Shown: positions 26,991-50,169 of the stretch, piece after piece
Layout of the letters: each line of letters starts with the position of its first letter
How positions within the stretch are numbered: the first letter of the stretch is position 1
Assembly: GCA_944350385.1 (NCBI GenBank)
Contig: CALVOV010000007.1
Span: 1 to 54,059, forward strand
DNA: 54,059 nucleotides
Direction: 5' to 3'
Source of the DNA: an uncultured Bacilli bacterium
GTDB taxonomy: Bacteria; Bacillota_I; Bacilli_A; RF39; UBA660
The notes under the pieces: generated by a model
Seen by the model: only the letters and a program-made list of their open reading frames with translations
The model's database searches: none
Told to the model about the DNA's origin: nothing
Made by a program: the position numbers and the translations under genes

Positions 26991-29093
26991 TTAATTATTA
27001 ATTTTAGATAATTTCTTATGATTTTTCATAAGTTTTTTAACACCATAAGGTAATTTAAAAGCAACACTTACTAGGGTATTGCTTACCTCTACTACCTTAC
27101 CTGTACCAAACGATTCATGATAAACATAGTCACCAACTTGGTAATCTATATCTTCCTCTCTGAACATTTCGCCAACTTCTATTTTCTTTTCTTCTTTTTT
27201 TAGTTCATTTGGAGTATTGGTCTCTAATAAATCTGGACTAATTTCATTAATAAATCTACTAACTGGATTTATTTGCTCTTTTCCAAATAAAGTCCTATGT
27301 CTAGCATTAACTAAATATAAATCATCTTTAGCTCTAGTTATAGCTACATAGCAAAGTCTTCTTTCTTCTTCTAATTCACTATTATCCATGAGTGAATTAA
27401 TGTGTGGGAATATTCCTTCTTCTAATCCTACAACAAAAACATGATTAAATTCTAATCCTTTTACTGAATGAATAGTCATTAAACTAATTTTATTAGGATC
27501 ATCTTTATACTCTTCTACATCACTTATCAAACTGATTTCTAGTAAAAAATCCTCTAGAGAAATTAGGCCATCTTTTTCTTCAAAAGATTTAGTTATAGAT
27601 TTAAATTCTTCAAGATTTTCTAACCTAATTTCTGACTCTAACGTTTTTTCACTTTCTAATTCATTTTTTATTCCTGATGCTGTTAATACTTTATCAATTA
27701 ATTCTGTTAAAGTCAAATCATCTTTCATAGCAGATAATTTTTCAATCATATGCTTAAATTCTAATTCTTTTCCACTATTAATAGCCTCAAAAATACTAAT
27801 ATTTTGGCTATCAGCTGTTATTGTCAAGCTTTCAATTGTTTTTAAACCAATACCCCTCTTTGGAGTATTAATAATTCTTAATAGTGAGACATTATCCTTA
27901 GGATTATGAATTAAGCGTAAGTAGGCAATTAAATCTTTTATTTCTTTTCGAGAATAAAAGTAAAAACTTCCTATTACGCGATATGGTAAATTTTCTTTAA
28001 GCATTTCTTCTTCTAAGACACGTGATTGAGCATTTGTTCTATATAAAACTGCTATATCTTGATACTCTACACCTTTATTTATTAACTCTTTTACTTTTCT
28101 AATAACGTATTGAGCTTCATCACGTTCATTAAATGCTCGGTAATATTTTATTTTGTCTCCTATTCCACGAGAAGTCCATAATTTTTTATCTTTCTTCTGT
28201 CGATTATTTTTAATTACTTGATTTGCTGCATCTAGTATAGTACTTGTTGATCGATAGTTTTCTTCTAGAAGAACTGTTTTAGTATCTGGATAATCTTTTT
28301 CAAAATTTAAAATATTTTTATAATTTGCTCCTCTAAAACTATATATGCTTTGAGAGTCATCTCCAACACAAGTTATGAATCGATTCTTTTCACTGATCAT
28401 CTTAGTTAAAATGTATTGAGCCTCATTAGTATCTTGATATTCATCTATTAATAAGTACTTATATATTTGTTGATATTTTTCCAAAATGTCCGGATTATTT
28501 CTAAATAATTCTATTGGTAAAATCAATAAATCATCAAAATCTACCGAATTATTATTCTTTAATTTTTTATTATATTTTTCATATACTTGAACTACAACTT
28601 GTTCATAATCACTAGCTGCGAATCTTTCATAGTCCTTCGGTGCCATAAGCTCATTTTTACAACTACTTATTTTATTTCTAATAGCCCTTGGATTATATAC
28701 CTTAGGATCTAAATTCATATCTTTTATAATTTTTTTAACAACTGATAATGAATCATCACTATCCATGATAACAAAATTAGAATCATATCCTAATATTTTA
28801 TAATTTTCTCTTAAAAGTTTTAATCCAAAACTATGAAATGTAGATATTTGAATTTTTTTAGCTATACTTCCTATTAATCCTTCGATTCTATCTTTCATTT
28901 CTTTGGCTGCTTTATTTGTAAAAGTAATTGCAAGTATATTATATGGTGACACCTCTAATTCTTTTATTAAATAAGCTATTTTAGTCGTTAATGTTTTTGT
29001 TTTTCCTGCTCCTGCTCCTGCTATTATTAACAATGGTCCATCATTGTATAATACGGCTTCTCTTTGCTTTTCATTTAATCCTGATAAGTCCAT
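26991..29093 (-). CDS. pcrA: ATP-dependent DNA helicase PcrA/UvrD
   Basis: A 700-residue superfamily 1A 3'-5' helicase for repair and replication-fork processing. Motif I is IIAGAGAGKTKTLTTKI, followed by AITFTNKAAKEMK, FDDLL, LLIDEYQDTNEAQY, CVGDDSQSIYSFRGA, LLEENYRS, LMTIHSVKGLEF and CYVAITRAKDDLYL. The C-terminal Tudor-like segment (YHESFGTGKVVEVSN, ~650-700) is typical of PcrA. The frame opens at 29117, but the -10 hexamer ends two bases before that ATG, so transcription starts inside the extension; I therefore start at the ATG at 29093 (MDLSGLN). Confidence 0.95.
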   Translation of the reverse strand: MDLSGLNEKQREAVLYNDGPLLIIAGAGAGKTKTLTTKIAYLIKELEVSPYNILAITFTNKAAKEMKDRIEGLIGSIAKKIQISTFHSFGLKLLRENYKILGYDSNFVIMDSDDSLSVVKKIIKDMNLDPKVYNPRAIRNKISSCKNELMAPKDYERFAASDYEQVVVQVYEKYNKKLKNNNSVDFDDLLILPIELFRNNPDILEKYQQIYKYLLIDEYQDTNEAQYILTKMISEKNRFITCVGDDSQSIYSFRGANYKNILNFEKDYPDTKTVLLEENYRSTSTILDAANQVIKNNRQKKDKKLWTSRGIGDKIKYYRAFNERDEAQYVIRKVKELINKGVEYQDIAVLYRTNAQSRVLEEEMLKENLPYRVIGSFYFYSRKEIKDLIAYLRLIHNPKDNVSLLRIINTPKRGIGLKTIESLTITADSQNISIFEAINSGKELEFKHMIEKLSAMKDDLTLTELIDKVLTASGIKNELESEKTLESEIRLENLEEFKSITKSFEEKDGLISLEDFLLEISLISDVEEYKDDPNKISLMTIHSVKGLEFNHVFVVGLEEGIFPHINSLMDNSELEEERRLCYVAITRAKDDLYLVNARHRTLFGKEQINPVSRFINEISPDLLETNTPNELKKEEKKIEVGEMFREEDIDYQVGDYVYHESFGTGKVVEVSNTLVSVAFKLPYGVKKLMKNHKKLSKINN

Positions 29094-42919: not shown

Positions 42920-44542
42920 TTATTTATTTTTCTGCCTTTGAATTGTATTTTTATAATCATCATAATTTCCTACGTAACTTGTCAATTTTTTATCTTCCAA
43001 CATAATTATTCTTGTTGCTACTTTATTAATAAAATATCTATCGTGAGATATCATTAGTATAGTACCATTATAATTATTTAATGCTTCCTCTAAAATTTCT
43101 TTAGTATTTATATCAATATGATTAGTTGGTTCATCTAATATTAAAAGATTATTATTTTTTTGAATTAGACAAAATAGTTTTAATCTGATTCTTTCTCCTC
43201 CCGATAATTTATTTAATCTAGAAAATACTCCTTCTCCATAAAATAGAAATTTAAATAAAGCACTTCTTAGTTTTTCTTCTGTTCCAATAAAATATTTATG
43301 TGCTTCATCTAATACTGTAATTGATTCATCTTCAAAAATTATTTCTTGTGGAATATAACCTATTTCTAGATTTGTACCCATTCTTATATTTTTATTTTTA
43401 TTTAAAATTTGTTTTACTAAAGTTGATTTCCCACTACCATTTTTTCCCATCAAACAAACTTTTTCTTGATATTTTAATATCATATTAGCATTTTTGAATA
43501 GTTCTTTTCCTTCTATTGAATAATTAAAGTTTCGTAATTCTAAAATATCATTACCACTTCTTTTATCTATGTCAAAGTTTAGTGGTATTTTGATATCCTG
43601 TTTTGGTTTATCTAGTACTTCTATTTTTTCTAATCTTTTTTCGATACTAGCGGCTCTTCTAAAGAAATTTTCACCATTTGGATAAGCTAATTTTCCATAT
43701 TCACGTAATTTTTTTATAGATTTTTTCATTGCTTCTATTTGTTTTTGTTGATTTTTATATTCATTAAATTCACGCATAATTCTATTTTCATTTTCTACTA
43801 AATAATAAGAATAATTACCATGAAATATTTCTGAAGTCCCTTTATCAATCAAAATTATTTTATTTGCTACTTTATCTAAAAAATATCTATCGTGAGATAC
43901 TATTAAAATTGTTTTTTTATAATCTTTAATAAAATTTTCCAGCCATTCTAATGTATCGATATCTAAATGATTAGTTGGTTCATCTAGTAATAAAATATCC
44001 GGCTCTTGCAAAAGAATAGCCATTAAATTTACTATTGTTTTTTCTCCTCCTGATAAATTTTCATATTTTTGGTCTATTAACTTATCCATTTTAAAACCAG
44101 CTACTATTTTTTCTACTTTAGAATTTATTTCATAACCTCCTAAAGAAATAAATTCTTCTTGCAGTAGTGTATATCTTTTTATTGCTTTATCTAACAATTC
44201 GCCTGTTGTTGTAGATAACTTCTCTTCTGCTGATTTTAATTTATTACTTAATTCATTTATTTTTTTAAACGAAGAATAAAGTATTTCTTTAATTGTAAAT
44301 GAATTAAGTTCTACTTTTGGTTTTTGTTCTAATATAGCTATAGTTGCATCTTTTCTTATTATTACATCACCAGATGTTGGTAATTCTTCTCTAGATATTA
44401 ATTTCAATAAAGTTGTTTTTCCGCAGCCATTTGCCCCTATTAAAGCAACATGTTCTTTTGTTTTTATTTCAAAATTTATATTTTTTAAAACTTCTTTATT
44501 TCCAAAGCTTTTATTTACTTTATTTAAACCTATTTCTATCAT
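42920..44542 (-). CDS. ABC-F ATPase, probable antibiotic-resistance-type ribosome protection protein
   Basis: A 540-residue protein with two fused ABC domains and no membrane segment. Walker A motifs: GANGCGKTTL and GKNGSGKSTL. Signatures: LSGGEKT and LSGGERIR. Walker B: ILLLDEPTNHLD and LLILDEPTNHID. The inter-domain linker (about 245-320, with GKLAYPNGENFFRRAASIEKRLEK) is the part that reaches into the ribosome P-site region and displaces drugs in Msr/Vga/Lsa/VmlR-type ABC-F proteins. Length fits that group (about 480-550). The attenuator leader upstream is strong support for a drug-inducible resistance role. The drug class cannot be read from sequence; a housekeeping ABC-F is the alternative. 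Confidence 0.85.
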   Translation of the reverse strand: MIEIGLNKVNKSFGNKEVLKNINFEIKTKEHVALIGANGCGKTTLLKLISREELPTSGDVIIRKDATIAILEQKPKVELNSFTIKEILYSSFKKINELSNKLKSAEEKLSTTTGELLDKAIKRYTLLQEEFISLGGYEINSKVEKIVAGFKMDKLIDQKYENLSGGEKTIVNLMAILLQEPDILLLDEPTNHLDIDTLEWLENFIKDYKKTILIVSHDRYFLDKVANKIILIDKGTSEIFHGNYSYYLVENENRIMREFNEYKNQQKQIEAMKKSIKKLREYGKLAYPNGENFFRRAASIEKRLEKIEVLDKPKQDIKIPLNFDIDKRSGNDILELRNFNYSIEGKELFKNANMILKYQEKVCLMGKNGSGKSTLVKQILNKNKNIRMGTNLEIGYIPQEIIFEDESITVLDEAHKYFIGTEEKLRSALFKFLFYGEGVFSRLNKLSGGERIRLKLFCLIQKNNNLLILDEPTNHIDINTKEILEEALNNYNGTILMISHDRYFINKVATRIIMLEDKKLTSYVGNYDDYKNTIQRQKNK

Positions 44543-44568
44543 ATAATCACATCCTTAAAAATAAATAA

Positions 44569-44590
44569 AACCTATACATCTGCATAGGTT
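44569..44590 (-). terminator. Second hairpin of the ABC-F leader
   Basis: A 7-bp stem (44569-44575 with 44584-44590, AACCTAT/ATAGGTT) is followed on the transcript by TTATTTATTTTT, then the gene's ribosome site. A CCTATATCTG stretch upstream can pair with CAGATGTATAGG, giving a competing fold. Confidence 0.6.
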
Positions 44591-44610
44591 AAACACAGAT
44601 ATAGGCACGA

Positions 44611-44656
44611 CAAAAACAATGACACCTACATCTTTTATTTTTACGATGTGGTGTCA
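44611..44656 (-). terminator. Attenuator terminator of the ABC-F leader
   Basis: TGACACC-ACATC (44645-44656) pairs with GATGT-A-GGTGTCA (44620-44632), 12 bp with a one-base bulge, followed by TTGTTTTTG. It starts one base after the leader-peptide stop, so a stalled ribosome would cover its upstream arm. Confidence 0.8.
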
Positions 44657-44698
44657 CTATATTGTAAATCCTTTAATCTGATTTGCATATAGTAACAT
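44657..44698 (-). CDS. ABC-F leader peptide (13 aa)
   Basis: ATG at 44696-44698 and TAG at 44657-44659 encode MLLYANQIKGFTI. An AGGAG ribosome site lies 9 bases upstream (44708-44712). It sits between the promoter and the attenuator hairpin, the layout of stalling leader peptides that regulate resistance genes. Too short for routine gene calling. Confidence 0.7.
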   Translation of the reverse strand: MLLYANQIKGFTI

Positions 44699-44718
44699 AT
44701 CTCTCAACTCCTGTGGAT

Positions 44719-44747
44719 ATTATACAATCATTATTATTATTAGTCAA
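44719..44747 (-). promoter_or_regulatory. Promoter of the ABC-F leader and gene
   Basis: TTGACT (44742-44747), a 17-base spacer and TATAAT (44719-44724). One of the best promoter matches in the window. The 5' leader of about 170 bases runs from here to the gene. Confidence 0.85.
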
Positions 44748-44756
44748 ATCAATAAA

Positions 44757-44781
44757 AAAGTAGAACTAAAAGTTCTACTTT
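44757..44781 (-). terminator. Terminator of the alcohol/aldehyde dehydrogenase operon
   Basis: An 11-bp perfect stem (44757-44767 with 44771-44781, AAA loop) and a T-tract. The TAG stop of the aldehyde dehydrogenase (44775-44777) lies in the upstream arm of the transcript. Confidence 0.88.
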
Positions 44782-46211
44782 AATACATTTTTCAAAACAA
44801 TTGTTTTTATATGAGACATTTCTTGTAATGTTGTAGATATTCCTTCATTTCCAATACCTGAGTGTTTCCAACCACCGAATGGCATTTCTGCTGAACGGAA
44901 GAAACTTGAACCATTAATTACCACTCCACCAACTTCCAATTTTTCAGCTACCTTAAAAGCATTATTGATATTTTTGGTAATTATGTTTCCACATAATCCA
45001 TATGTTGATTGGTTGGCAATATCTATTGCTTCTTCGATTGTATCGAATCCACAAATTGGAATAATTGGACCAAATACTTCCATATCTTTCATTATATCCA
45101 TATCTCTGTTAATATCTACTAATATGGTTGGCTCAAAGTAAGCTCCATTTCTTCTACCACCAAAAGCGATATGTGCTCCTTGCTGTAATGTCTTTCTTAC
45201 TTGCTCCTCAACGCGAGATGCTGCTCTTTCATTAATTAAACAGCCTATTTCAGTATTTTCATTCATAGGATCACCTACACGCATTCTACTAATTCTGGCG
45301 ATTGCTCTTTTAATAAATTCTGCTTTTATGTCATTATGTACTAAGAATCTTTTACTTGCACAGCATACTTGACCTGTATTATAAAGTCTACCTGCAACCA
45401 TTTCTTCTACAGCTAAGTCTAAATCACCATCTTTATCTAGAATAAAAGCATCATTTCCACCTAATTCCAACATTACATGGGTTAAGTTTTGTGAAGCTGT
45501 AGCCATTGTTTCCATACCTACAGCGGTTGAACCTGTAACACTTACTAAATGAACACCTTTATGGCGTGCTAAAGCTTGCCCTACTATTGGTCCATCTCCT
45601 GATAAGCAATTAATAACTCCATCTGGTATTCCTGCTTCTTTTAAAAGTAGGCAATATTTATGTAATGTTAATGGATTATATGTAGATGGTTTTACAATTA
45701 CTGCATTTCCCATTATTAAAGCGCTTGGAACTTTCTGGCCAAATAAATCACATGGAAAGTTAAATGGAATAATGCAAGCTACTACTCCTAATGGTTGTCT
45801 TATTGTAAATTGATATGTTTTTTCTTGTCCTGGTTCATTTCCTGCTGGAATATTAATTCCATATAAATGTTTAGCTCTTTCTACGTATGCAGAAACAAAA
45901 GTTCTAGTATTACCAATTTCAATTCTTGCTTCTTTAATTGGCTTTCCTGTTTCTCGGCATAATGTAACCGCTAACGATTCAGTATCTCTTTCAACTAATT
46001 CTACAAACTTCATTAATATTCTAGCACGTTCGTGTAAAGGAGTTTCTGCCCATCCTTTCTGAGCTTCTACTGCGCATTTTACGCAATAGTCCACATCTTC
46101 TTCAGTTGATGCTGGCACTGTAGCAATTAGTTGATTATTAGCTGGATTTCTGACTTCTATAGCTTGTCCATCACTAGCATCTAATTCTTTACCATTTACT
46201 AAGTTTCTCAT
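44775..46211 (-). CDS. NAD(P)-dependent aldehyde dehydrogenase
   Basis: A 478-residue ALDH. The NAD-binding and catalytic motifs are intact: IIPFNFPCDLFGQKVPSAL, VTGSTAVGMETM, catalytic Glu in MLELGGNDAF and catalytic Cys in YNTGQVCCASKRF, then EVFGPIIPI and MPFGGWKHSGIGNEG. The overall pattern is closest to succinate-semialdehyde or lactaldehyde-type dehydrogenases (GabD/AldA group), oxidising an aldehyde to an acid. It is the last gene of an operon with an iron alcohol dehydrogenase and a FIST-domain protein. With the upstream dehydrogenase it could interconvert a hydroxy acid and a diacid (4-hydroxybutyrate/succinate is one option); not provable here. Confidence 0.9.
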   Translation of the reverse strand: MRNLVNGKELDASDGQAIEVRNPANNQLIATVPASTEEDVDYCVKCAVEAQKGWAETPLHERARILMKFVELVERDTESLAVTLCRETGKPIKEARIEIGNTRTFVSAYVERAKHLYGINIPAGNEPGQEKTYQFTIRQPLGVVACIIPFNFPCDLFGQKVPSALIMGNAVIVKPSTYNPLTLHKYCLLLKEAGIPDGVINCLSGDGPIVGQALARHKGVHLVSVTGSTAVGMETMATASQNLTHVMLELGGNDAFILDKDGDLDLAVEEMVAGRLYNTGQVCCASKRFLVHNDIKAEFIKRAIARISRMRVGDPMNENTEIGCLINERAASRVEEQVRKTLQQGAHIAFGGRRNGAYFEPTILVDINRDMDIMKDMEVFGPIIPICGFDTIEEAIDIANQSTYGLCGNIITKNINNAFKVAEKLEVGGVVINGSSFFRSAEMPFGGWKHSGIGNEGISTTLQEMSHIKTIVLKNVLK

Positions 46212-46219
46212 TTTACCTC

Positions 46220-47407
46220 CTAATTTTTACCGAATGCTGTGAAAGATAACATTAATCCACCACAAATATTTGCTGAGTGTTCATCATATCCATATTCACC
46301 AAATGTGAATATTGTAATAAATGGAACACCTTTTGCTTCTTTTAATAATTGTTTATAAACTTCTTCAATTCTATCACCAATACCAAGCTTTCTTCCTCCA
46401 CAATGTACTAAGAAATAAGCTGCTGGATCTGTATATAATTGTTTTTTCACATCTCTTAAAGTATTTCCTGTAGAATTAATTAATTCATCTACTGTGGCTT
46501 CTAGTTGAAGAATTGCGGTACCTGGTACTGCTTTATTACCTAATGTAATAGTATCATCTGCTGTTGTCCTTGTTCCCATATCATTACCAAACATTGGATG
46601 ACGTATTACAGTTAAATTTCCTAATGGATCTTTTACTCCTAATGGTTTAGTAATTGATGCTACTAATAAATTTTGACCTTTTAATGATTCTGGCTTTACA
46701 TTGATCCATTGAGCATATTTCTTTAATGCTGAAATACCATCAATAGTTACTAATGTACGATTATCTTTTACTTCTGTAATAATACCAACATTTTCTGTCT
46801 CATTGTATGCACCAGTATAAGATGTTGCAATCTCATTATCAGTATAGAAAAATGCAACTGCTACTCCATCACTAAATACTTTATCATTACAGAAAATTTT
46901 CCATTTTCCTTCTACTGTATCATCAGCAGCACTTCCTCCAAACATTGGAACTCTACCAATAACATCTTGGATTCCCATTAAATAATCTTCTTCTTCTTTT
47001 GGACTAGCTACCATATAGAAATAGGCTGGTGCTCTTGTTGTTTTAGCATTTTCTACTGCTTCAATTGCAACCTTTCTACCTATTGCTCTAGCATCCTTTC
47101 CAGCTTCATGACAAGCAACACCTACTACCATATCTGGATCATCTAAGGCCATCATTCCAGCAAAACCATTATCAGAACTTATAACACCTTCTGGAGTTAT
47201 AATAGCTCCTGAACTTGTACATCCGATTATTGGTGCAGTTGTAACACTTCTTACACCTTTGATTAATTCTTTAATATCATTTTTTACAGAAGTATATAGA
47301 AAACCTAATTTTGTGTATTCCATTCCTTCTGTAGCCATAGTTGCAGTTTGTACTCCTGCATTAAAACTATTAGCATCAACACTTTGTCCAACTTTTGATT
47401 TTAACAT
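46220..47407 (-). CDS. FIST-domain (FIST_N / FIST_C) protein
   Basis: 395 residues. The N-terminal FIST_N domain (about 30-215) has VTTAPIIGCTSSGAIITPEGV, ACHEAGKDARAIGR and VPMFGGSAADD. The C-terminal FIST_C domain (about 225-390) ends with EYGYDEHSANICGGLMLSFTAFG. FIST domains are thought to bind small ligands such as amino acids and are often in signal transduction proteins; here the domain stands alone with no kinase or cyclase output. It lies between the two dehydrogenases (gaps of 8 and 19 bases), so it may bind a pathway metabolite or scaffold the enzymes. GGGAGG ribosome site about 12 bases before the ATG. Confidence 0.82.
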   Translation of the reverse strand: MLKSKVGQSVDANSFNAGVQTATMATEGMEYTKLGFLYTSVKNDIKELIKGVRSVTTAPIIGCTSSGAIITPEGVISSDNGFAGMMALDDPDMVVGVACHEAGKDARAIGRKVAIEAVENAKTTRAPAYFYMVASPKEEEDYLMGIQDVIGRVPMFGGSAADDTVEGKWKIFCNDKVFSDGVAVAFFYTDNEIATSYTGAYNETENVGIITEVKDNRTLVTIDGISALKKYAQWINVKPESLKGQNLLVASITKPLGVKDPLGNLTVIRHPMFGNDMGTRTTADDTITLGNKAVPGTAILQLEATVDELINSTGNTLRDVKKQLYTDPAAYFLVHCGGRKLGIGDRIEEVYKQLLKEAKGVPFITIFTFGEYGYDEHSANICGGLMLSFTAFGKN

Positions 47408-47426
47408 ATTTTATTTTTTCCTCCCT

Positions 47427-48578
47427 TTAATATGCTTCTTTATAAATTTTTATAATATCATCAACAGTTACTTCTCTTGGATTTCCAGGAGTGCAAGCAT
47501 CATTAATAGCTTGTTTAGCTAAAGTAGGAATCATCTCTTCTGTAATACCTACCTCTTTTAATGTTTGTGGAATATTTAATTTTTTAGATAAAGTTTGAAT
47601 TGCTTCTACTACCTTCTCAACTGCCACTTCATCAGTTGTATCTGTCATATCTATTCCTAATGCAAAGCCCATATTTCTAAATAATTGTGGGCATACTTTA
47701 CCATTAAATTTCATAACATATGGTAATAATATTGCATTAGCTATACCATGTGGAGTATCAAAATATGCTCCTAATGAATGAGCCATTGAATGAACTATTC
47801 CTAACCCAACATTAGAAAATCCCATACCAGCAATATATTGAGCATAGGCCATTTTTTCTATTGCTACTTTATCTTTTTCATTAGCGGCTTTTTCAAGATT
47901 TTTATAAATTAATGCCATAGCATTTATATGAAACATGTCAGGGATAAACCATGCTGCTTTAGTGATATATCCTTCCATTGCATGTGTTAATGCATCCATT
48001 CCTGTAGATGCAGCTAACTTTTGTGGCATTTCATCCATTAAATCTGGATCAATTATAGCTACTACTGGAATGTCATGTGTATCTACACATACCATTTTCT
48101 TTGTTCTTGCTTCATCAGTAATAACATAATTAATTGTTACTTCTGCTGCCGTTCCAGATGTAGTTGGTAACGCAATTAAAGGCAAGCCCTTATTTTTAGT
48201 ATCAGCTACTCCATCTAAACTAACTACATCATTAAATTCAGGATTTGTCATAATTATAGAAATAGCTTTTGCTGTATCTATAACGCTTCCTCCTCCAACT
48301 GCAACAATGCAATCTACATTATTGATATTTGCCATTAATAATCCATCTTGAACATTTTTTACAGTGGGATTAGGCTTAACACCATCAAACATATAGTATC
48401 CAATTGTATTATGTTCTAATACTCTTGTTACCTTATTGACTAATTTAGATTCATATAAAGTTTTATCAGTAACAAGAAGTATTCTGTGAAATCCTCTGGA
48501 TTTTATTTCTGATGCTAATTTTTGCCTAGAACCTCGACCAAAGTAAGATGTTTCATTTAAAATAATTCTATTTACCAT
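47427..48578 (-). CDS. Iron-containing alcohol dehydrogenase
   Basis: A 383-residue Fe-ADH (group III). The NAD-binding GGGSVIDTAKAI and the metal-binding Asp/His set (MDALTHAMEGYIT, GIVHSMAHSLGAYFDTPHGIANAI) are all present. Resembles 1,3-propanediol, lactaldehyde or 4-hydroxybutyrate dehydrogenases. First gene of the operon, GGGGAGG ribosome site; a TATAAT lies about 40 bases upstream without a strong -35. Confidence 0.92.
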   Translation of the reverse strand: MVNRIILNETSYFGRGSRQKLASEIKSRGFHRILLVTDKTLYESKLVNKVTRVLEHNTIGYYMFDGVKPNPTVKNVQDGLLMANINNVDCIVAVGGGSVIDTAKAISIIMTNPEFNDVVSLDGVADTKNKGLPLIALPTTSGTAAEVTINYVITDEARTKKMVCVDTHDIPVVAIIDPDLMDEMPQKLAASTGMDALTHAMEGYITKAAWFIPDMFHINAMALIYKNLEKAANEKDKVAIEKMAYAQYIAGMGFSNVGLGIVHSMAHSLGAYFDTPHGIANAILLPYVMKFNGKVCPQLFRNMGFALGIDMTDTTDEVAVEKVVEAIQTLSKKLNIPQTLKEVGITEEMIPTLAKQAINDACTPGNPREVTVDDIIKIYKEAY

Positions 48579-48648
48579 TTTCTAGCCTCCCCATTCTATT
48601 TAATTATAACATATTTGAATTATAAGAAAAGTTTTTTTTATAAAATAA

Positions 48649-48679
48649 AAATGGTTTACTTAAAATAAGTAAACCATTT
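48649..48679 (-). terminator. Terminator of the t6A operon
   Basis: A 13-bp perfect stem (48649-48661 with 48667-48679) with a T-rich tail on the minus strand, 6 bases after the tsaD stop. Confidence 0.9.
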
Positions 48680-48685
48680 AATATG

Positions 48686-49690
48686 TTATCTTAATTCATC
48701 TTGTGATTTAGAATTTAAATTCATATCTGCTCTTCTGCCATCTAAGTAAGCATAATATCCAGCAGCCGCAATCATTGTAGCATTATCCGTACAATATTTC
48801 ATTGGTGGTATGCATAAATCAAAATCTAATTCTTTTGCTAATTTTTCCATAGCTTCTCTAAGACCTTGATTTGCTGCTACTCCACCCGCTACAATTACAT
48901 TTTTTATTTTTTTATCTATTATAGCTTTTCTAACTTTTGTTATTATTGCTTCAATGGCAACTTCTTGAAAAGATGTGGCAAGATCCGCTTTACGTAATTT
49001 ATTACCTCTTTGCTCTTCGTTATGAGCTAAATTAATAACTGCACTTTTTAATCCACTAAAAGAAAAATTATAACTATCATCTTTTAAGGGAACTGGTAAT
49101 TTATATGTATCTTTTCCTTCTTTTGCCAATTTGTCTATTTTTGGTCCACCTGGATATTCCAATCCTATTACACGAGCAACTTTGTCATAACATTCTCCTA
49201 TAGCATCATCTAATGTTCCACCTAATTTATTAAATCTATAATGTTTTGTCATTTCTATTAATTCAGTATGCCCTCCACTTACTACTACCGCTAATAATGG
49301 AAAAGTCATTTCTTTTACTAGACTATTGGCATATATATGACCGGCAATATGATGCACTGGAATTAGTGGTTTATTATAGACAAAAGCTAGAGTTTTAGCT
49401 GTTTCTAATCCTATTAATAATGATCCTATTAAACCTGGACCATATGTTATAGCAATAGCATCAATCTGTTCCATAGTCATATTTGCTTTTTCCATACATG
49501 ATTCTAGTACCATTGTTACATTTTTAACGTGTTGTCTACTAGCGATTTCTGGAACTACCCCACCAAAATCTTTATGAATATCAATTTGACTAGAAATTAC
49601 TGTTGCAACCTCTTCTGTTCCATTTTTTACAATAGAAACACTAGTTTCATCACAACTACTTTCAATTCCTAATATAAAAGTATCTTTCAT
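48686..49690 (-). CDS. tsaD: tRNA N6-adenosine threonylcarbamoyltransferase
   Basis: A 334-residue TsaD, catalytic subunit that transfers the threonylcarbamoyl group to A37 of ANN-decoding tRNAs. ILGIESSCDETSVSIV, IPVHHIAGHIYAN with the metal-binding His pair, VVSGGHTEL and VAGGVAANQGLREAM are intact. Normal length. It has an extended -10 promoter (49717-49725) after the rimI terminator, but could also receive read-through from tsaE-tsaB-rimI. Confidence 0.97.
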   Translation of the reverse strand: MKDTFILGIESSCDETSVSIVKNGTEEVATVISSQIDIHKDFGGVVPEIASRQHVKNVTMVLESCMEKANMTMEQIDAIAITYGPGLIGSLLIGLETAKTLAFVYNKPLIPVHHIAGHIYANSLVKEMTFPLLAVVVSGGHTELIEMTKHYRFNKLGGTLDDAIGECYDKVARVIGLEYPGGPKIDKLAKEGKDTYKLPVPLKDDSYNFSFSGLKSAVINLAHNEEQRGNKLRKADLATSFQEVAIEAIITKVRKAIIDKKIKNVIVAGGVAANQGLREAMEKLAKELDFDLCIPPMKYCTDNATMIAAAGYYAYLDGRRADMNLNSKSQDELR

Positions 49691-49716
49691 TTTATACCTC
49701 TTTTCAACTCGTTCTT

Positions 49717-49725
49717 ATTTTAACA
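49717..49725 (-). promoter_or_regulatory. Extended -10-like promoter of tsaD (TGTTAAAAT)
   Basis: TGTTAAAAT follows the rimI terminator's T-tract, 27 bases upstream of the tsaD start. Confidence 0.35.
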
Positions 49726-49726
49726 C

Positions 49727-49760
49727 AAAAGACTCTTTTTTACTAGTTAAAGAGTCTTTT
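49727..49760 (-). terminator. Terminator after the rimI-like gene, stop codon in loop
   Basis: A 12-bp perfect stem (49727-49738 with 49749-49760). The TAA stop of the acetyltransferase (49747-49749) spans the loop. Confidence 0.85.
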
Positions 49761-50169
49761 TTCTTTCCATCAATATTCCATCAATTCCCTGATAATATCC
49801 TTTTCTAATAGCTTTTTCCACAAAATTAAATTTTTTATAAAGAGCTATTGCTGGAAAATTATCTATTTTAACTTCAAGCGTAATATTTTTATCCACAATT
49901 TCAATTAATTTTTGTAACATTTTTGAGCCTTTTCCACAGTTTCTGTGGATAAAATTAATTTCTATTTGATTAATTTCTACTCTATCATATATATCACTAT
50001 AGTAAATATATCCAATTAATTCTTTATTTTCTTCAATTAATAATAAAAACTTGCCAAAAGGATTTATTTCTAATTCTTTTTTTGCATTTTCTACAGAAAA
50101 AAAATTGTTTTTTGATATATATTCTTGATCTAAAATTGAAAAATTATTTTTATCAACTTCAATAAACAT
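49747..50169 (-). CDS. rimI: GNAT acetyltransferase, RimI-like
   Basis: A 140-residue GNAT protein. The acetyl-CoA loop is seen in INFIHRNCGKGSKMLQKLI (R/Q-x-x-G-x-G/A type), followed by LEVKIDNFPAIALYKKFNFVEKAIRKGYY, the typical C-terminal half of RimI. RimI homologues N-acetylate ribosomal proteins and are often next to tsaB and tsaD. Its ATG overlaps the tsaB stop (TAATG). It contains a cluster of DnaA-box-like sequences. Confidence 0.85.
   Translation of the reverse strand: MFIEVDKNNFSILDQEYISKNNFFSVENAKKELEINPFGKFLLLIEENKELIGYIYYSDIYDRVEINQIEINFIHRNCGKGSKMLQKLIEIVDKNITLEVKIDNFPAIALYKKFNFVEKAIRKGYYQGIDGILMERKKTL
49814..49952. other. Cluster of DnaA-box-like 9-mers
   Basis: TTTTCCACA at 49814-49822 and 49930-49938 (one mismatch each) and TTATCCACA at 49889-49897 and, on the other strand, 49944-49952 (perfect consensus), all within the rimI-like gene. 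Another perfect box is at 53058-53066. It could be a DnaA-titration or regulatory site, or chance within coding sequence. Confidence 0.35.

What the first reader, a model, noticed from the sequence alone, without database searches (positions are those of the whole stretch)
44543..44747. Leader-peptide attenuator upstream of the ABC-F gene
Seen: TTGACT-17-TATAAT promoter, AGGAG, a 13-codon ORF (MLLYANQIKGFTI), a terminator whose stem begins one base after the leader stop, then a second hairpin just before the gene, with an alternative pairing between leader segments. Ribosome-mediated attenuation of this form is known for resistance ABC-F genes. It predicts induction by ribosome-targeting antibiotics that stall translation of this peptide.
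Basis: partly seen in the sequence, partly recalled or inferred. Interest (0 to 1): 0.75.

Follow-up and report, generated by a model that had tools for sequence, protein, structure and literature searches.

The report
Ribosome-sensing switch before ABC-F gene
A gut bacterium carries, just before a gene for a ribosome-helper protein (ABC-F), an RNA switch that reads where a ribosome stops on a tiny upstream gene; the same switch design controls histidine and cysteine genes in its relatives, so the ABC-F version looks like an amino-acid sensor fitted with a different stop signal.

Summary
In detail: promoter, SD, 13-codon leader ORF, two hairpins and alternative pairings are all at 44543-44747, minus strand. 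The element is conserved in 34 leaders upstream of orthologous ABC-F genes in one bacterial family. Three mutually exclusive helices (B:C, C:D, D:E) covary, and the leader peptide has a conserved core (IMY, IGY or KGF) with codon-like variation. So this is very probably a real ribosome-mediated transcription attenuator.

The first hairpin has a poor U-tract in all 34 leaders; the second is the better terminator. A covariance model of the element also finds homologous leaders before hisS and cysS, whose tandem His or Cys codons lie at the same distance from the first hairpin as the aromatic codon of the ABC-F core. The best reading is trp-like: a ribosome arrested at the core lets the first hairpin form, which frees an antiterminator (D:E) that blocks the second hairpin; a ribosome reaching the stop does the opposite.

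The inducer is unknown. The ABC-F passes no named resistance-class model and groups away from OptrA, PoxtA and MsrA, so drug induction is plausible but unshown. New variant of a known kind.

The parts
44719..44747 (-). sigma-70-type promoter, TTGACT-17-TATAAT
   Evidence: 11 of 12 consensus matches; similar promoters (9-12 of 12) upstream of 31 of the 32 leaders whose sequence reaches that far, 8 of 12 in the other
44708..44712 (-). Shine-Dalgarno AGGAG of the leader ORF
   Evidence: sequence; an SD-like site precedes the leader ATG in the other leaders
44657..44698 (-). leader ORF MLLYANQIKGFTI, stop TAG
   Evidence: core codons invariant at positions 1 and 2, varying at position 3 for I, Y and F
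44666..44677 (-). conserved peptide core IKGF (IMY or IGY in relatives); Phe codon starts 11 nt before the first hairpin
   Evidence: aromatic codon to first hairpin 11-14 nt in the 32 complete leaders, while the stop lies at -3 to +18
44687..44696 (-). arm A1 (GUUACUAUAU), pairs with A2 at the leader stop
   Evidence: MFE fold; read by eye in other leaders, not counted formally
44653..44662 (-). arm A2 (AUAUAGUGAC), overlaps leader stop and 5' end of arm B
   Evidence: MFE fold
44645..44657 (-). arm B, 5' strand of the first hairpin (T1)
   Evidence: T1 (B:C): 98.9% of cells paired, 13 cells changed on both sides, 0 of 500 shuffles reach the covariation score
44619..44632 (-). arm C, 3' strand of T1, also pairs with D
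   Evidence: C:D: 97.6% of cells paired, 13 cells changed on both sides
44612..44616 (-). short U-tract after T1 (U4-5, then GUCG in most relatives)
   Evidence: terminator score of T1 negative in 34 of 34 leaders
44596..44611 (-). arm D (GUCGUGCCUAUAUCUG), the most conserved stretch; pairs with C or with E
   Evidence: alignment A1; pair counts
44569..44590 (-). second hairpin T2 (arms E and E'), probable intrinsic terminator
   Evidence: terminator-like; score positive in 31 of 34 leaders; E pairs with D in the alternative
44557..44570 (-). U-rich tract of T2 (UUUUAUUUAUUUUU)
   Evidence: sequence
44551..44556 (-). Shine-Dalgarno AAGGAU of the ABC-F gene
   Evidence: sequence
42920..44542 (-). 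ABC-F ATPase gene, 540 aa
   Evidence: NF000355 435.9 bits over cut-off 380; no named ARE class passes its cut-off

Best explanation
A ribosome-mediated transcription attenuator of trp-like logic with a chain of mutually exclusive hairpins: A1:A2, B:C (T1), C:D, D:E, E:E' (T2, the main terminator). A ribosome that translates on to the stop covers B, so C pairs with D, E folds into T2 and transcription ends. Shown: anatomy, conservation, covariation of B:C, C:D and D:E, peptide-level constraint on the core, fixed spacing, and homologous His/Cys-codon leaders with the same geometry. Inferred: the switching order, that T2 terminates, that the core peptide causes the arrest, and the inducer (most likely a ribosome-targeting drug or another translation block; not identified).
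For: 34 leaders with the same parts. Covariation of B:C, C:D, D:E. T1 is a poor terminator and T2 a good one. Homologous leaders before hisS and cysS, found as the weak tail of model R1, carry tandem His or Cys codons; model R2 built from them finds 41 matches in 34 of 291 family genomes, nearly all of those read having His-rich leaders, three RRR, and in the reverse direction its hits fall on the ABC-F leaders. In the 13 His leaders modelled before the script stopped, the first repeated codon is 14 nt (11 nt in one) from T1, and a ribosome with that codon in the A-site leaves B:C and D:E formed in all 13, while at the stop B:C is lost in all 13. The aromatic codon of the ABC-F core is at the same distance (11-14 nt). 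With that codon in the A-site B:C beats C:D in 31 of 32 ABC-F leaders; two codons further or at the stop, in 0 of 32. Genes after the His leaders include hisS and hisG above NCBIfam cut-offs.
Against: All folding is equilibrium ViennaRNA with an assumed footprint (-14/+15), not kinetics. In many leaders, chiefly those with MLNY-type peptides, T2 is more stable than D:E at equilibrium, so antitermination would need co-transcriptional folding. T1 keeps a U4-5 tract in all ABC-F leaders, which this model does not need. In several His leaders D:E rather than C:D still forms with the ribosome at the stop. D:E in a single sequence is only modestly longer than in shuffles. One divergent leader (L120) has a strong U7 tract after T1 and no D, E or T2, and so must work by another logic. 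Similarity of the ABC-F and His leaders is weak for the window itself (R2: 15.3 bits, E 0.96). No expression data.
Confidence: 0.6

Rival explanations
1. MsrD-like masking: T1 is the controlling terminator; a ribosome arrested at the core or just after it covers the 5' arm of T1, T1 cannot form and RNA polymerase reads through.
For: With the aromatic codon in the P-site the modelled leading edge breaks the outermost 3 bp of T1 in 32 of 32 leaders, one codon earlier in 3 of 32. T1 is the most stable hairpin and has U4-5 in every ABC-F leader. L120 has T1 with U7 and no T2. MsrDL works this way (PMC10314930).
Against: T1 terminator scores negative in 34 of 34 and T2 positive in 31 of 34. If B is masked, C:D forms and T2 is predicted to fold. 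It gives no role to the covarying C:D and D:E helices. Homologous His/Cys leaders have no U-tract after T1.
Confidence: 0.18
2. Position decoding with two locks: T1 is a partial terminator and T2 a second one. Only a ribosome arrested with the aromatic codon in the P-site escapes both, because it opens the base of T1 but leaves enough of B:C to keep C away from D.
For: At this position the T1 base is open in 32 of 32 while B:C still beats C:D in 25 of 32. It would explain both U-tracts and the tight spacing.
Against: Needs fine positional accuracy; 7 of 32 leaders, the window among them (B:C 3, C:D 8 expected pairs), do not fit at that exact position.
Confidence: 0.12
3. Amino-acid sensor: by analogy with its His, Cys and Arg relatives the leader senses charging of tRNA-Tyr or tRNA-Phe at the conserved aromatic codon.
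For: Same chassis and same codon position as the tandem His/Cys leaders; the codon is Tyr in 27 and Phe in 5 of 32 leaders.
Against: A single codon, not a run; Tyr and Phe are interchangeable between clades; the preceding residues are also conserved, which starvation sensing does not require; the target is a translation factor, not an amino-acid gene.
Confidence: 0.07
4. Chance assembly of ordinary intergenic hairpins without regulatory function.
For: AT-rich genomes contain many short ORFs and U-tracts; the single-sequence D:E signal is modest.
Against: Conservation and covariation across the leaders, a single own-genome copy at this strength, shuffles z -4.45.
Confidence: 0.03

Closest known systems
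MsrDL-msrD attenuator (streptococcal macrolide resistance; PMC10314930)
   Same: Short leader peptide before an ABC-F gene, terminator hairpin next to the leader, ribosome arrest controls termination.
   Different: One terminator masked directly by the ribosome; peptide MYLIFM arrested at the stop codon. Here a longer peptide with an IMY/IGY/KGF core, a hairpin chain C:D and D:E, and a second, better terminator.
VmlR and CplR uORF attenuators (PMC9226507, PMC10201436)
   Same: uORF inside a 5' hairpin, anti-antiterminator/antiterminator/terminator logic, ABC-F target, Gram-positive.
   Different: Three-codon uORFs (MIN; MR[I/M]) where PLSA drugs stall initiating ribosomes; SD-sequestering terminator in cplR. 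Longer uORF here, different ABC-F class.
His leader peptides before hisZ and hisS* in Bacillus (Naville and Gautheret 2010, PMC2965389); trp/his attenuators
   Same: Logic proposed here; the hisS, hisG and cysS leaders found in this family are of this general kind.
   Different: The ABC-F leader has no run of one amino acid; its sensor is a conserved mixed peptide core. Whether the Bacillus RNA is homologous was not tested.
Rfam RF04312 trpB motif (PMC11109978)
   Same: Two hairpins, second a terminator, amino-acid genes in Firmicutes; weak match to hisS leader L149 (33.4 bits, cut-off 59).
   Different: Described as a riboswitch candidate, classic attenuator not ruled out; no match to the ABC-F leader.
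uORFC-6-1 (hflX, RLR peptide) and uORFC-8-2 (cysS, tandem Cys) (PMC8632094)
   Same: Leader-peptide attenuator candidates for a ribosome-rescue gene and for cysS.
   Different: Other taxa and other peptides; the RNA structures were not compared here.

Membership tests
Ribosome-mediated transcription attenuators (trp/his-like) | Translated leader ORF with SD and promoter, close upstream of the gene | tested here: met
   codon-position pattern in the core. Translation itself not measured.
Ribosome-mediated transcription attenuators (trp/his-like) | Mutually exclusive antiterminator and intrinsic terminator | tested here: met
   D:E versus T2, C:D versus D:E; covariation, T2 terminator score
Ribosome-mediated transcription attenuators (trp/his-like) | Ribosome position on the leader decides which helix forms | tested here: inconclusive
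   Equilibrium modelling agrees; no experiment
Drug-inducible ARE ABC-F attenuators (msrD, vmlR, cplR type) | Downstream gene is an antibiotic-resistance ABC-F | tested here: inconclusive
   No named ARE class passes its cut-off; 29-35% identity to OptrA, PoxtA, MsrA; tree places it with other Bacilli ABC-Fs; VmlR, Lsa and Vga were not in the tree
Drug-inducible ARE ABC-F attenuators (msrD, vmlR, cplR type) | Induced by ribosome-targeting antibiotic through arrest on the uORF | not testable with these tools
   No expression or toeprint data
MsrDL-type single-terminator masking | The hairpin next to the leader stop is the controlling intrinsic terminator | tested here: inconclusive
   T1 score negative in 34 of 34 (formula recalled from memory); L120 variant has U7 after T1
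Amino-acid leader-peptide attenuators of this bacterial family (His/Cys/Arg chassis) | Shared RNA architecture and sequence | tested here: met
   R1 finds them, R2 finds ABC-F leaders (weak for the window itself)
Amino-acid leader-peptide attenuators of this bacterial family (His/Cys/Arg chassis) | Run of codons of the regulated amino acid | tested here: not met
   Leader MLLYANQIKGFTI and relatives have none; so it shares the chassis but is not an amino-acid attenuator by this definition
Rfam families | Match at gathering score | tested here: not met

The most novel reading that the evidence does not exclude
The leader core is an intrinsic arrest peptide that stalls ribosomes without any drug and is released by the ABC-F protein itself. 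The attenuator, built by swapping the sensor codons of an amino-acid attenuator, would then measure ABC-F activity (or the load of stalled ribosomes) and keep it constant.
Probability: 0.15. Interest if true: 0.85.

Novelty: new variant of a known kind. Interest (0 to 1): 0.6.

Why it matters
It gives an alignable set of leaders in which one RNA switch serves different sensors: runs of His, Cys or Arg codons for amino-acid genes, and a mixed peptide core (IMY/IGY/KGF) for an ABC-F gene. If right, attenuators for ribosome stress can arise from amino-acid attenuators (or the reverse) by changing mainly the leader peptide. The conserved core is a candidate new arrest motif, and the cascade predicts which 3' end and which mutations matter.

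Tried and rejected
Rfam at gathering and at E up to 10 gave nothing meaningful for the leader. T-box origin of the weak R1 hits was considered and dropped: no T-box match at gathering score, and the leaders carry tandem His/Cys codons. A second uORF starting at UUG/GUG in arm D was considered and dropped by eye: start codon and frame are not conserved. A pseudoknot of D:E with the base of T2 looks geometrically possible in some leaders but not in others (e.g. L015, clade 1), so it was not pursued. A viral-contig scan for the D motif gave 18 hits without the surrounding element and none for the longer form. B or A2 pairing with the ABC-F Shine-Dalgarno was seen in several leaders by eye but not tested statistically. 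Model R1 found nothing outside the family in the class and phylum samples, and R2 nothing outside it in the class sample. No structure prediction was run.

Full report
What is there. On the minus strand of the window, between a terminator-like hairpin after the preceding gene (44757-44781) and the ABC-F gene (42920-44542), lie a near-consensus promoter, a Shine-Dalgarno site, the ORF MLLYANQIKGFTI, and two hairpins. The leader RNA folds much better than its shuffles (z -4.45, 0 of 200).

Conservation. Orthologous ABC-F genes were fetched from public genomes and from the genus and family. The gene is sporadic: 36 of 291 family genomes at the threshold used. Reading the upstream regions in the right orientation gave 25 leaders and a covariance-model search gave nine more, 34 in all. 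Each has the same order: promoter, SD, leader ORF, hairpin T1, short U-tract, a nearly invariant stretch (GUCGUGCCURCAUC, arm D), hairpin T2 with a U-tract, SD, ABC-F; two are truncated upstream. In the tree (FastTree) the leader-bearing ABC-Fs group together (0.93), beside a clade whose upstream regions lack the leader (0.98). One gene without the D motif, L120, falls inside the leader group and has a reduced leader (see below).

Pairings. Arms B, C, D and E can pair as B:C (T1), C:D and D:E, each excluding the next; E also folds on itself as T2. Counted on alignment A1 (25 sequences), B:C is paired in 98.9% of cells, C:D in 97.6% and D:E in 96.6%, with 13, 13 and 15 cells changed on both sides; in no case did any of 500 shuffles reach the observed covariation score, though that control does not account for relatedness. 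L145, not in that alignment, changes all three helices and keeps them paired (read by eye). For single sequences the evidence is uneven: the longest C:D helix averages 12.1 against 6.9 with arm D shuffled, but D:E only 9.1 against 7.0. A further pairing A1:A2 links the leader start to its stop and the base of T1 in the window fold; it was seen by eye in other leaders but not counted.

Which hairpin terminates. A d'Aubenton-Carafa-type score, with the formula recalled from memory, is negative for T1 in all 34 leaders and positive for T2 in 31. T1 is followed by only four or five U, then mostly GUCG; T2 by a long U-rich tract. The exception is L120, which has a U7 tract after T1 and no D, E or T2.

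The peptide. Aligned on the aromatic residue, the core reads IMY (20 leaders), IGY or IAY (6) or KGF (5), with one exception, RLY in L103; two truncated leaders were left out. In the IMY group the Ile, Met and Tyr codons are invariant at positions 1 and 2, while Ile and Tyr vary at position 3; the KGF group shows the same at Ile and Phe. That pattern points to selection on the peptide. The aromatic codon starts 11-14 nt before T1 in all of them, whereas the stop lies either at the base of T1 or up to 18 nt further on (for L013 and L019 the table there matched an upstream IMY, and the value was recomputed from the core used).

Homologous amino-acid leaders. The weak hits of the covariance model were followed up. 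They are leaders of the same build before hisS (including one in this same genome, contig C14), an M20 peptidase and cysS, with peptides such as MLNQIIKFNHHHNSLHLLIRH and MLLYRNTCCMKSMHLSL. A second model built from six of them finds 41 matches in 34 of 291 family genomes. Of the 32 loci read (30 from that search plus L146 and L150), most have a run of His codons, three have RRR and one CC; the genes include hisS and hisG above NCBIfam cut-offs and a protein with sub-threshold similarity to histidine racemases. In the reverse direction 19 of this model's 21 hits at E up to 1 fall on ABC-F leaders, although weakly (window 15.3 bits, E 0.96). Neither model found the element outside the family in the samples searched. 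His leader peptides in Firmicutes as such are not new: they were reported before hisZ and hisS* in Bacillus (PMC2965389).

Logic. In these homologs there is no U-tract after T1, so only T2 can terminate, and expression is expected on His or Cys shortage. In the 13 His leaders modelled before the script stopped, a ribosome with the first repeated codon in its A-site leaves B:C and D:E formed in all 13; at the stop B:C is lost in all 13, though D:E rather than C:D is still favoured in several. That codon lies 14 nt before T1 (11 nt in one), as the aromatic codon does in the ABC-F leaders. In 32 ABC-F leaders, with the aromatic codon in the A-site, B:C beats C:D in 31; with it in the P-site, in 25; two codons further or at the stop, in none. 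The most consistent reading is therefore trp-like: arrest at the core gives B:C, then D:E, then read-through of T2; a ribosome at the stop gives C:D, then T2. These are equilibrium calculations with an assumed ribosome footprint, and the trp-like reading was preferred over two others after seeing them; they show consistency, not mechanism.

What does not fit. T1 keeps its U4-5 tract in every ABC-F leader, which the trp-like reading does not need. With the aromatic codon in the P-site the base of T1 is predicted open in 32 of 32, which would suit the masking model. L120 must work by masking if it works at all. In many leaders T2 is more stable than D:E at equilibrium. For these reasons masking (0.18) and a two-lock combination (0.12) stay open.

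What is sensed. Unknown. The ABC-F passes the general NF000355 model but no named resistance class. Its nearest plasmid relatives are 41% or less identical, and OptrA, PoxtA and Msr(A) 29-35%. In a tree with those references it groups with other Bacilli ABC-Fs of unproven function; VmlR, Lsa and Vga were not included. Some 36-41% relatives lie next to tsaD or rex, as YdiF does by my own knowledge of Bacillus. Known ABC-F uORFs respond to drugs (PMC9226507, PMC10201436, PMC10314930), so a drug is the likeliest inducer, but an intrinsic arrest relieved by ABC-F, general slow translation, or aromatic amino-acid shortage are not excluded.

Verdict. The new points are the second terminator, the covarying D arm, the conserved peptide core at fixed spacing, and the shared chassis with His/Cys leaders of the same family.

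Noticed in passing
window 27299-27398, minus strand: Rfam RF03531 (n00280, an sRNA described within a helicase gene of Clostridioides difficile) matches just above its gathering score (67.3 against 65.2).
   Followed up: no
L191 (own genome, contig C14 15854-15972) and L211-L228: Leaders with tandem His codons and the same RNA chassis precede hisS, hisG, an 85-aa unknown ORF, a histidine-racemase-like gene and unclassified proteins in many family genomes.
   Followed up: partly
L235, L237, L238: Leaders with runs of Arg codons (e.g. MKHYSINLRRRTRRRLGMK) before M20-type peptidases, suggesting arginine sensing on the same chassis.
   Followed up: partly
L149 1497-1586, minus strand: The hisS leader is a sub-threshold match to Rfam RF04312 trpB motif (33.4 bits, cut-off 59), a riboswitch candidate that its authors said might be a classic attenuator.
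   Followed up: no
L120, upstream of its ABC-F gene: A reduced leader: same Tyr-to-T1 spacing (about 13 nt), strong U7 tract after T1, no D, E or T2.
   Followed up: partly
window 44775-50169: The ABC-F lies three genes downstream of a tsaD-rimI-like pair, separated by aldehyde dehydrogenase, FIST-like and lactaldehyde reductase-like genes; YdiF-type ABC-Fs elsewhere sit near tsaD or rex.
   Followed up: partly
L010, L015, L090 and others, between T1 and the ABC-F start: The 5' arm of T1 (or A2) can pair with the ABC-F Shine-Dalgarno region, which would add translational control; seen by eye only.
   Followed up: no
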